Source: Nitrospiraceae bacterium
GTDB taxonomy: Bacteria; Nitrospirota; Nitrospiria; Nitrospirales; Nitrospiraceae
Length of the DNA stretch: 64,000 nt
Assembly: GCA_019637075.1 (NCBI GenBank)
Contig: JAHBWI010000001.1
Span: forward strand, 806,001 to 870,000
Direction of reading: 5' to 3'
This document shows positions 30,462 through 32,492 of the stretch, piece by piece. A program made the position numbers and the translations under genes. Position 1 is the first letter of the stretch, and each line of letters begins with the position of its first letter. The notes below the pieces were generated by a model that worked only from the letters and a program-made list of their open reading frames with translations, was not told the origin of the DNA and did not search any database.

Positions 30462-31526
30462 TCATCCCCCTCGGGCATGCATTTCCAGGTGGGGATCTTC
30501 TTTCAGGCGGTCGACTTCGATGAGACGTTGTTCCCGCAAACCAAGCGCTTCCAGCGATTTCCGCTCCTCGGCGCCACGGTCCGCGCGTCGTTCCCATGAG
30601 TTGGTGATCAGGGTTGTGAGTTCCTGACGGCTTTTCCCGGTGCGAAGCGGTGCCCGCAGATCCAAACCGTCTTTTGCATACAAGCACAGGTACCACATAC
30701 CGTCTGCCGTCAATCGGCTGCGATCGCAAGTTCTACAGAACGGTGTGGTCGTGGAAGGAATAATGCCAAAGGTCGTGCCGTCTGGCAAGATGAACCGTTC
30801 AGCCGGCGCCACGCTATTCTCGACGATCGGCTCGACGCCGCCGTAATGACGGCCGATCACATCCAGCATCTCGGCACGGGAACAGACCTGATTCATAGAC
30901 CAATCGGTTGCGCCGCCGACATCCATGTACTCGATGAATCGGACCTCGCCGCCCGCCGTCTTGGCATATTCGATCAGGTCAATAACTTCATCGTCGTTGT
31001 ACCCCTTGATCACAACCGTGTCGAATTTCAGAGCAGGAAATCCGGCCTTCACGACGGCCTTGATCCCATCGAACACCTGATGGTGCAGATCGCGCTTGGT
31101 CAGCGCCCGAAACCGGTCGGCTCGAAGCGTGTCCAGACTGACCGTCACCCGATGCAGCCCGGCAAACGAGAGATCGGACGCCTGATCCGCCATCAAGACG
31201 CCGTTGGTCGTGAGCGCGATGTCGGTAATCCGACGATTCTCCGACAGCATCCGCACAAACCGCGGCAGGTCACGGCGCAGCAGCGGCTCTCCGCCGGTCA
31301 GCCGCACCTTGTCGACGCCCAGATCCGTGAACACACTGACCAGTTCCGCCATCTCCTCAAACGTCAGGATGGTCTCGCGCGGCAACCAGGCATAATCCTC
31401 TTCCGGCATGCAGTACTTACAACGGAGGTTGCACCGATCGGTGACGGAGACTCGGAGGCTCCGCAGCGGCCGAGCAAGCCGATCGTGAATCGCGGGCACC
31501 GGTTGGTCTAGGATGGGTTGATCCAT
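30462..31526 (-). CDS. moaA: GTP 3',8-cyclase MoaA
   Basis: A 354-residue radical SAM enzyme that rearranges GTP in the first step of molybdopterin synthesis. The SAM cluster motif C-N-L-R-C-K-Y-C (C32, C36, C39) is intact, as is the second cluster (C-R-T-C and C 14 residues on, with R-x-S-R-L). The carboxy terminus ends in Gly-Gly, as required for activation. It is the fourth gene of the moa operon. Confidence 0.97.
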   Translation of the reverse strand: MDQPILDQPVPAIHDRLARPLRSLRVSVTDRCNLRCKYCMPEEDYAWLPRETILTFEEMAELVSVFTDLGVDKVRLTGGEPLLRRDLPRFVRMLSENRRITDIALTTNGVLMADQASDLSFAGLHRVTVSLDTLRADRFRALTKRDLHHQVFDGIKAVVKAGFPALKFDTVVIKGYNDDEVIDLIEYAKTAGGEVRFIEYMDVGGATDWSMNQVCSRAEMLDVIGRHYGGVEPIVENSVAPAERFILPDGTTFGIIPSTTTPFCRTCDRSRLTADGMWYLCLYAKDGLDLRAPLRTGKSRQELTTLITNSWERRADRGAEERKSLEALGLREQRLIEVDRLKEDPHLEMHARGG

Positions 31527-31607: not shown

Positions 31608-32084
31608 CTACGGATGCTCCTCGACCCAGACCTCCCCCTCCGTCGTATGTTCCAACTTCCAAATCGGGGTGATCTGCTTCAGTTCGTCGATAGCCCACTT
31701 GCAAGCCTGAAAGGCTTCGGCACGGTGCTCAGCCCCCACAATGATCAGCACGATGTTCTCCCCGATGCTGATCTCTCCATAGCGATGGAGGACTAACACC
31801 TCGAGGACATCGAAATCCTTGAGCGCGCGTTCCCGAATCTCGCGCAACTTCTTTTGCGCCATGCCTTCGTAATGCTCGAAGGTGATGCCGTCGACATCGC
31901 GCCCCTTGGACCGATCGCGCGCAGTGCCCAGAAACATGGCAATGCCCCCAATTCGCTTGGACCTGGTCCGAACGCGCCTGAGCTCCTCATCGATCGAGAA
32001 ATCCTCACGCTGCACCCGCACCAGCATGGCGGTATCGTCATCCGCAACCGGAACCTCTGTATTCGTAGCCTGCTCAAGGCTCAT
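31608..32084 (-). CDS. moaE: Molybdopterin synthase catalytic subunit MoaE
   Basis: A 158-residue subunit that transfers sulfur from MoaD to cyclic pyranopterin monophosphate. Visible are H-R-Y-G-E-I-S-I-G-E, the anion site H-R-A-E-A-F-Q-A-C and the catalytic lysines in D-E-L-K-Q-I-T-P-I-W-K-L-E. The ATG at 32084 follows GAGGAG. The gap to moaD is filled by a palindromic repeat (32111-32237). Confidence 0.95.
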   Translation of the reverse strand: MSLEQATNTEVPVADDDTAMLVRVQREDFSIDEELRRVRTRSKRIGGIAMFLGTARDRSKGRDVDGITFEHYEGMAQKKLREIRERALKDFDVLEVLVLHRYGEISIGENIVLIIVGAEHRAEAFQACKWAIDELKQITPIWKLEHTTEGEVWVEEHP

Positions 32085-32110: not shown

Positions 32111-32237
32111 CCATGAAGAATGGTCAAAAGGATTTCCCAGCAAGGCCGCAGCGAGCAGGAAGGCGAAGCCTACGCCTTCGGTACGTTGAGCCTTCGAGCA
32201 CAGCGAGAACGAAGCTGGAAATCCTTTTCACCATCCT
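32111..32237. repeat. Palindromic dispersed repeat between moaE and moaD
   Basis: The ends form an imperfect inverted repeat of about 24 bases (GAAGAATGGTCAAAAGGATT and the complement of the right end 32214-32240). The interior carries a second hairpin, GAAGGCG, seven bases, CGCCTTC (32158-32178). Related partial sequences are at 44236-44300 (GTACGTTGAGCCT shared) and 51364-51384. It looks like a mobile or REP/MITE-type element. The family link rests on visual matches only. Confidence 0.55.
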
Positions 32238-32492
32238 TCACATGCCGCCGGCAAAAGGCGGCAACAGCGCAATCTCATCCCCGTCGTTCACGACAAGGTC
32301 TTCATGGGCGATTTCTTGATTGACCGACACCAATACTTTCTTCTTATGAAGCAACTCGCCGATTTTAGGGTTGGCGGCATCGATGAGCCCGATGACATCC
32401 TTGACCCGCCGACTTTCGCCCAACGTCAGTGAGAAGGTGCTCTGATTCCCCGCCAGCATCTTCGTCATTCCAAACAAGCGGACCGTGACCAT
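32238..32492 (-). CDS. moaD: Molybdopterin synthase sulfur carrier MoaD, with extra terminal Met
   Basis: An 84-residue ubiquitin-like sulfur carrier. The beta-grasp fold is readable (MVTVRLFG..., G-D-E-I-A-L-L-P-P-F-A-G-G). In MoaD the final Gly-Gly must be exposed because MoeB adenylates it and sulfur is attached as thiocarboxylate. Here the protein ends G-G-M, with a single Met after the pair. The palindromic repeat begins immediately beyond the stop. Start ATG 32492 follows GAGGAAAC. Whether the Met is trimmed or the protein is inactive cannot be seen. Confidence 0.9.
   Translation of the reverse strand: MVTVRLFGMTKMLAGNQSTFSLTLGESRRVKDVIGLIDAANPKIGELLHKKKVLVSVNQEIAHEDLVVNDGDEIALLPPFAGGM

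What the first reader, a model, noticed from the sequence alone, without database searches (positions are those of the whole stretch)
32238..32270. MoaD ends in Gly-Gly-Met
The sulfur carrier needs a free terminal Gly-Gly for activation. Here codons read GGC GGC ATG TGA, adding one Met. Either a protease trims it, as known for some sulfur carriers, or MoeB/MoaE here tolerates it, or this MoaD is impaired. A palindromic repeat starts right after the stop, so its insertion may have created the extension.
Basis: seen in the sequence. Interest (0 to 1): 0.66.

Follow-up and report, generated by a model that had tools for sequence, protein, structure and literature searches.

The report
Split MoaD-MoaE fusion with leftover tail
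The extra methionine on this bacterium's molybdenum-cofactor sulfur carrier looks like the stump of an older fused protein that relatives still make in one piece, which implies that a protease has to trim the carrier before it can work.

Summary
Confirmed: moaD (window 32492-32238, minus) ends ...LPPFAGG-Met-stop, and a palindrome begins at its stop codon. It is neither a lone oddity nor a sign of decay. Among 136 orthologous loci from 134 genomes of the family, 97 encode MoaD and MoaE as one ORF with the Gly-Gly internal, and 39 are split. Of the 39, only 2 end in bare Gly-Gly; 37 carry 1-56 extra residues. Gly-Gly is kept in 136 of 136. A tree needs at least nine fused/split changes, mostly fissions, one at the base of the window's clade, and one apparent re-fusion. 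A dispersed palindromic repeat lies in the former linker of 15 of the 39 splits, the window's included. The window genome has one MoaE, two MoeB-type enzymes and, beside one MoeB, a JAMM metalloprotease with an intact HxHx7SxxD motif. Best reading: a MoaX-like fusion, matured by proteolysis after Gly-Gly, was broken into two genes; the Met is a remnant that the JAMM protease still removes. Fusion and JAMM cleavage are known from Mycobacterium and Deinococcus. Recurrent, repeat-associated fission with retained tails is the new part. Cleavage here is inferred, not shown.

The parts
32238..32492 (-). moaD, 84 aa, ends LPPFAGG-M
   Evidence: TIGR01682 E 4e-11 but below its curated cut-off (43.5 vs 66.15 bits)
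32244..32249 (-). Gly-Gly codons, predicted last residues of mature MoaD
   Evidence: invariant in 136 of 136 family loci
32241..32243 (-). Met codon after Gly-Gly: remnant of linker or repeat junction, predicted to be trimmed
   Evidence: only Met at this place among 136 family loci
32114..32240 (.). palindromic repeat of a dispersed family; 24-nt arms 32114-32137 and 32217-32240; lies where relatives have the MoaD-MoaE linker
31608..32084 (-). moaE from the probable ATG (MSLEQ...), preceded by GAGGAG; its N-terminal stretch up to MLVRVQREDF matches the fusion linker. A longer ORF reaches 32114
   Evidence: only MoaE in the genome
32505..33017 (-). moaC
   Evidence: TIGR00581 207.7 bits, cut-off 141.5
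30462..31526 (-). moaA
   Evidence: TIGR02666 350.9 bits, cut-off 284.05

Best explanation
The ancestor of these Nitrospirota made molybdopterin synthase as one polypeptide, MoaD-GlyGly-linker-MoaE, which had to be cut after the second Gly to free the MoaD C-terminus for adenylation by MoeB and thiocarboxylation (as for MoaX of M. tuberculosis and DR2607 of Deinococcus). In several lineages, the window's among them, the linker was broken by a stop, a frameshift or a palindromic repeat, giving separate moaD and moaE. Because the cell still has the protease, MoaD did not need to end exactly at Gly-Gly, so remnants of 1-56 residues persist; in the window the remnant is one Met. The likely protease is the Mec-like JAMM protein at C1:582114, coded beside moeB2 and a CysO-like carrier. 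Shown here: sequence, fused relatives, tree, repeat, JAMM motif. Inferred: the cleavage, its site, and which protease does it.
For: Fused/split counts 97/39 in 136 loci; the tree needs 10 changes, 9 forced by starred branches, against a shuffled mean of about 34; fused state also in 20 of 28 loci read outside the family. Direct fused/split neighbours show repeat insertion, a 1-base deletion after GG (L122, L125) and a TAG/GAG difference (L104 vs L116). Gly-Gly 136/136; the residue after it is S, A, T, C, N or G in 97 of 97 fused loci. AF2 model of a fused relative has pLDDT under 50 in a stretch of 3 or more only at residues 81-90, the GG and start of the linker. JAMM at C1:582114, PF14464 E 1.4e-19, HSHx7SxxD, next to moeB2 in the window genome and two relatives. 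Only two full MoeB-like enzymes, both in that cluster. Single MoaE, six Mo-enzyme matches. Published: MoaX cut at Gly82-Ser83 is needed for activity (PMC4326299, abstract and Discussion read); DRJAMM cuts MoaD-MoaE leaving a C-terminal Gly (PMC8832034, abstract and Introduction read).
Against: No cleavage was observed. Met is the only bulky residue at this place among the 136 family loci; two fused loci of the other collection (L088, L092) do have GG-Met. JAMM is near-universal in the phylum (141 of 148), also where MoaD ends in bare GG (G072, G135), so its co-occurrence says little. It is not linked to moa. Two high-completeness genomes with an extended or fused MoaD lack a strong Mec-type match: G017 (99%, tail SEGC, best E 3e-5) and G111 (98%, fused, 5e-4); assembly gaps are possible. 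Some of the isolated splits in draft MAGs could be sequencing errors.
Confidence: 0.8

Rival explanations
1. Same origin (broken fusion), but the tail is removed by another enzyme, such as a general carboxypeptidase or a different endopeptidase, not by the Mec-like JAMM.
For: One Met is within reach of a carboxypeptidase; the JAMM gene is not linked to moa; G017 and G111 lack a strong Mec-type match. Two other JAB-domain matches exist in the window genome.
Against: Tails of up to 56 residues and whole MoaE domains must also be removed, which needs an endopeptidase cutting after Gly-Gly; JAMM is the class shown to do so in Deinococcus (PMC8832034).
Confidence: 0.13
2. MoeB and MoaE of this lineage accept a MoaD with extra C-terminal residues and no trimming takes place.
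For: Tails are very variable, as expected if they do not matter.
Against: Adenylation and thiocarboxylation act on the terminal Gly carboxylate (established chemistry; in MoaX loss of cleavage or of Gly82 abolishes function, PMC4326299). In 97 fused orthologues the Gly is in an internal peptide bond.
Confidence: 0.04
3. This MoaD is decaying, and the CysO-like carrier ending AIAGG (C1:580714) feeds MoaE instead.
For: The CysO-like protein passes TIGR01687 'MoaD family' (53.3 vs 49.5 bits) while the window MoaD is below all cut-offs.
Against: moaD is under strong purifying selection, keeps Gly-Gly, sits between moaC and moaE, and the CysO-like gene lies with cysK, moeB and JAMM in the window genome and in relatives that have their own MoaD.
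Confidence: 0.03

Closest known systems
MoaX of Mycobacterium tuberculosis (fused MoaD-MoaE)
   Same: MoaD-GlyGly-MoaE order; most orthologues in the family are of this form; Ser after Gly-Gly is the commonest residue here too (55 of 136 loci) as in MoaX (Gly82-Ser83).
   Different: The window copy is split and keeps one residue; M. tuberculosis also has separate MoaD/MoaE genes, the window genome has one MoaE only. No protease had been identified for MoaX in the 2015 paper.
DR2607 MoaD-MoaE and DR0402 (DRJAMM) of Deinococcus radiodurans
   Same: One fusion plus one JAMM metalloprotease that frees the C-terminal Gly.
   Different: No split or tailed form was described in the parts read; in the window genome the JAMM lies in a CysO/MoeB/cysK cluster.
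Sulfur carriers with extra residues removed by JAMM proteases (QbsE/QbsD, HcyS/HcyD; recalled, not read)
   Same: Short tail after Gly-Gly on a stand-alone carrier.
   Different: Those tails belong to siderophore or methionine pathways; here the tail is a remnant of a broken MoaD-MoaE fusion.
CysO/Mec+ cysteine pathway of M. tuberculosis (recalled; MoeZR double role in PMC3227635, abstract read)
   Same: CysO-like carrier, MoeB and JAMM with a cysteine synthase in one cluster, C1:577-583 kb.
   Different: Here the same cluster holds the only MoeB enzymes, so it probably serves molybdenum cofactor too (inference).

Membership tests
MoaX-type fused molybdopterin synthase | MoaD and MoaE on one polypeptide | tested here: not met
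   Window: two ORFs separated by a stop and a repeat. Met in 97 of 136 family orthologues.
MoaX-type fused molybdopterin synthase | Proteolytic release after the second Gly | not testable with these tools
   No protein data; Gly-Gly kept in 136/136.
MoaD sulfur carrier | Profile match, operon with moaC/moaE/moaA, Gly-Gly near the C-terminus | tested here: met
   TIGR01682 E 4.3e-11, though below its curated cut-off; operon and Gly-Gly seen.
MoaD sulfur carrier | Terminal Gly-Gly in the gene product | tested here: not met
   Encoded end is Gly-Gly-Met.
JAMM/MPN+ metalloprotease (C1:582114) | H-S/T-H-x7-S-x2-D metal-binding motif | tested here: met
   HSHPHDPARPSVTD read in the 180-aa ORF L013:10064-10606; PF14464 71.4 bits, cut-off 25; solved relatives 2kks, 2kcq, 5ld9 by sequence. 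Motif as given in PMC8832034.
JAMM/MPN+ metalloprotease (C1:582114) | Cuts MoaD after Gly-Gly | not testable with these tools
   Needs biochemistry.
REP elements moved by RAYT (Y1) transposases | A RAYT/Y1 transposase gene in the genome | tested here: not met
   PF01797: no match in G000. The repeat is therefore called palindromic, not REP/RAYT.

The most novel reading that the evidence does not exclude
In Nitrospirota the molybdopterin synthase gene is repeatedly broken, and at least once rejoined, without harm because a shared JAMM protease makes the exact MoaD end irrelevant; all molybdenum-cofactor supply, and with it nitrite oxidation, then passes through a proteolysis step tied to the cysteine-sulfur cluster and could be controlled there. 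Palindromic repeats falling 6-9 nt after Gly-Gly are a recurrent cause.
Probability: 0.3. Interest if true: 0.65.

Novelty: new variant of a known kind. Interest (0 to 1): 0.5.

Why it matters
It explains an apparently defective essential cofactor gene, predicts a necessary maturation protease in nitrite-oxidising and related Nitrospira, and gives a natural series (fused, tailed by 1-56 residues, bare Gly-Gly, re-fused) for testing what a JAMM protease accepts. It also warns annotators that in this group moaD tails and moaD-moaE fusions are normal, not frameshifts.

Tried and rejected
A bare-GG second MoaD making this copy redundant: the only bare-GG carrier found in the genome is CysO-like in a cysteine cluster; kept as a 3% rival. 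A second moaE: none. A RAYT transposase behind the repeat: none by PF01797. JAMM presence as a test by co-occurrence: uninformative, 141 of 148 phylum genomes have a match, all 71 with a MoaD/MoaE match included. Whether the window's repeat and those of the N. defluvii-like clade are one old insertion: unresolved; the junction GTGAAGGATG is shared with L106, L107 and L120 but identity of the first 130 nt after Gly-Gly is only 75-84% within that clade (gaps not counted). Counting nine independent fissions: the pairs L123/L184 (94%) and L124/L129 (92%) have near-equal inserts, so transfer of a split allele could lower the number. Two earlier classifications by script used a cruder rule on the 73 genome-contig loci (one search adds the window): 48 fused, 26 split, one of the 48 (L090) being a contig-edge fragment; the counts in this report are. 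The genus held no other genome. Papers: no mention of fused or split MoaD/MoaE in Nitrospira was seen in the listings of searches (open-licence PMC only; most listed papers were not opened), which is weak evidence that it is unreported. One search found no paper, nothing on tails.

Full report
On the minus strand the window carries moaC (33017-32505), moaD (32492-32238), moaE (to 31608) and moaA (31526-30462) in order. MoaD ends ALLPPFAGGM; the codons are GGC GGC ATG TGA. The TGA is the outer end of a palindrome with 24-nt arms, 92% complementary, 79 nt apart; its RNA fold is well below shuffles (z -5.5). Ten more matches at 72-77% lie in the window's genome, so it is a dispersed repeat. No Y1 transposase was found there.

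Relatives change the picture. A scan of named genomes gave 73 loci, nearly all titled Nitrospira or Nitrospirae/Nitrospirota. In most of them moaD does not stop after Gly-Gly but runs through a linker into MoaE. To count properly I searched 147 genomes of the window's family; 134 had a MoaD match at E 1e-10, 136 matches in all, and I read every one. 97 of 136 are fused in one ORF. 39 are split, the window among them. In the 39, the residues after Gly-Gly number 0 (2 loci) to 56; 37 of 39 have at least one. Gly-Gly is present in 136 of 136. In the 97 fused loci the next residue is S 38, A 35, T 12, C 6, N 4, G 2; in the split ones S 17, N 13, A 3, T 2, G 1, M 1 (the window), none 2. Thirteen of the 147 genomes gave no match and are not in these counts. 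Some loci lie near contig ends.

The split state is derived. A tree of MoaC, MoaD, MoaE and MoaA with the linker left out (136 rows, 724 columns, quick method) needs 10 changes between fused and split, 9 of them forced by well-supported branches, against about 34 for shuffled labels. Thirty of the split rows form one clade with the window as its first branch and one fused member inside (L104); the other nine split rows are scattered among fused ones. Outside the family I read 28 loci (8 returned and 20 fetched, out of the 39 non-family genomes with a match): 20 fused, 8 split, and 6 of those 8 again carry residues after Gly-Gly. So fusion is old in the phylum and fission recurrent. Since counts of changes cannot tell direction, this rests on fused loci surrounding the split ones and on the outside loci.

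Side-by-side DNA shows how the break happened. L123 against its near twin L213 is a fused locus with about 170 extra bases holding the repeat. L122 and L125 differ from L212 by one missing base directly after Gly-Gly, which makes a stop at once and leaves a true Gly-Gly end, with an ATG of the old linker available as start. L104 reads GAG where its sister L116 reads TAG: the one apparent re-fusion. The repeat is present in 15 of 39 splits (11 of the 30 in the window clade, 4 of the 9 others); its core GGATG starts 6-9 nt after Gly-Gly in all 15. L123/L184 and L124/L129 have 94% and 92% alike inserts although placed apart on the tree, so a split allele may have moved between lineages. In the window an extra base, compared with L106, L120 and L107, puts the stop one codon after Gly-Gly; whether Met is linker or repeat edge cannot be told.

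The gene is not dying. dN/dS of moaD against L121, L106, L227 and L105 is 0.04-0.09; against L116, L128 and L104 synonymous sites are saturated and no value is usable. The genome has one MoaE and six molybdopterin-oxidoreductase matches, one of them an 1148-residue protein of the type II DMSO reductase family (277.9 bits, below that model's cut-off), the family to which Nitrospira nitrite oxidoreductase belongs (my knowledge). Moco is therefore needed, and this is the only MoaE to make it.

A trimming machine is at hand. The genome holds three JAB-domain matches; the best, C1:582114, is a 180-residue protein with HSHPHDPARPSVTD. It follows moeB2 in a cluster of a ThiS-like carrier (GGGR end), cysK, moeB1, a threonine-synthase-like gene (named from its sequence, not tested), a CysO-like carrier ending in bare Gly-Gly, a small gene and moeB2; much the same order leads to JAMM in G063 and G060. 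The only two full MoeB-type enzymes of the genome are in this cluster. Window MoaD and JAMM are on one 899-kb contig. PF14464 matches occur in 144 of 147 family genomes; by my count of that table 128 reach E 1e-14, and the 19 that do not are mostly incomplete (median completeness 79%), but G017 (99%) and G111 (98%) are exceptions. Because JAMM is nearly everywhere, presence alone proves nothing.

Known background. MoaX of M. tuberculosis must be cut between Gly82 and Ser83 to work (PMC4326299, abstract and Discussion). DRJAMM of D. radiodurans cuts the DR2607 fusion and leaves a C-terminal Gly (PMC8832034, abstract and Introduction, citing Yang 2018, which I did not read). Iyer and colleagues proposed in 2006 that JAB domains free fused ThiS or MoaD (PMC1779556, passages). 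A survey found MoaD-MoaE fusions in 775 of 33957 bacterial genomes (PMC11237513, passage). An AlphaFold model of the fused L040 protein (14 sequences, mean pLDDT 79.5) has two folded parts, MoaE-like and MoaD-like by Foldseek, and a run of pLDDT under 50 only at residues 81-90, that is Ala-Gly-Gly and the start of the linker, as a cut site would need.

Verdict. The Gly-Gly-Met end is the stump of a broken MoaD-MoaE fusion, very probably trimmed after Gly-Gly, most likely by the Mec-like JAMM. Origin from a fusion: well supported. Trimming: strong inference. The named protease: likely. The kind of system is known; the recurrent fission with retained tails in Nitrospirota is a new variant as far as the searches here show.

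Noticed in passing
G000 C1:577320, C5:298883, C2:89895 (loci L004, L002, L005): Three other ThiS-family carriers of this genome also have residues after Gly-Gly: GGGR (before cysK), GGGAG (beside a ThiG-like gene) and ISGGV (before a TtcA/TtuA-like gene; both neighbours named from their sequence). With MoaD, four of five PF02597 matches are extended; only the CysO-like one ends in Gly-Gly.
   Followed up: partly
G000 C4:330073-330297 (L241:1026-1298, minus): A 90-aa MoaD-like ORF (32% identity to window MoaD) with GG-TGLAPSF at its end, next to an HU-like ORF (named from its sequence); no NCBIfam match.
   Followed up: partly
G000 C1:195599-196687 (L014): A 785-aa ORF with both an E1 (ThiF) and a JAB domain match, the make-up of bacterial ubiquitin-like or anti-phage systems.
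   Followed up: no
L123, L184: MoaD ORFs whose 55- and 56-residue tails are read straight through the palindromic repeat.
   Followed up: partly
15 split loci, 6-9 nt after the Gly-Gly codons: The repeat core begins in a very narrow stretch after Gly-Gly in lineages that are apart on the tree; target preference or transfer of a split allele would both explain it.
   Followed up: partly
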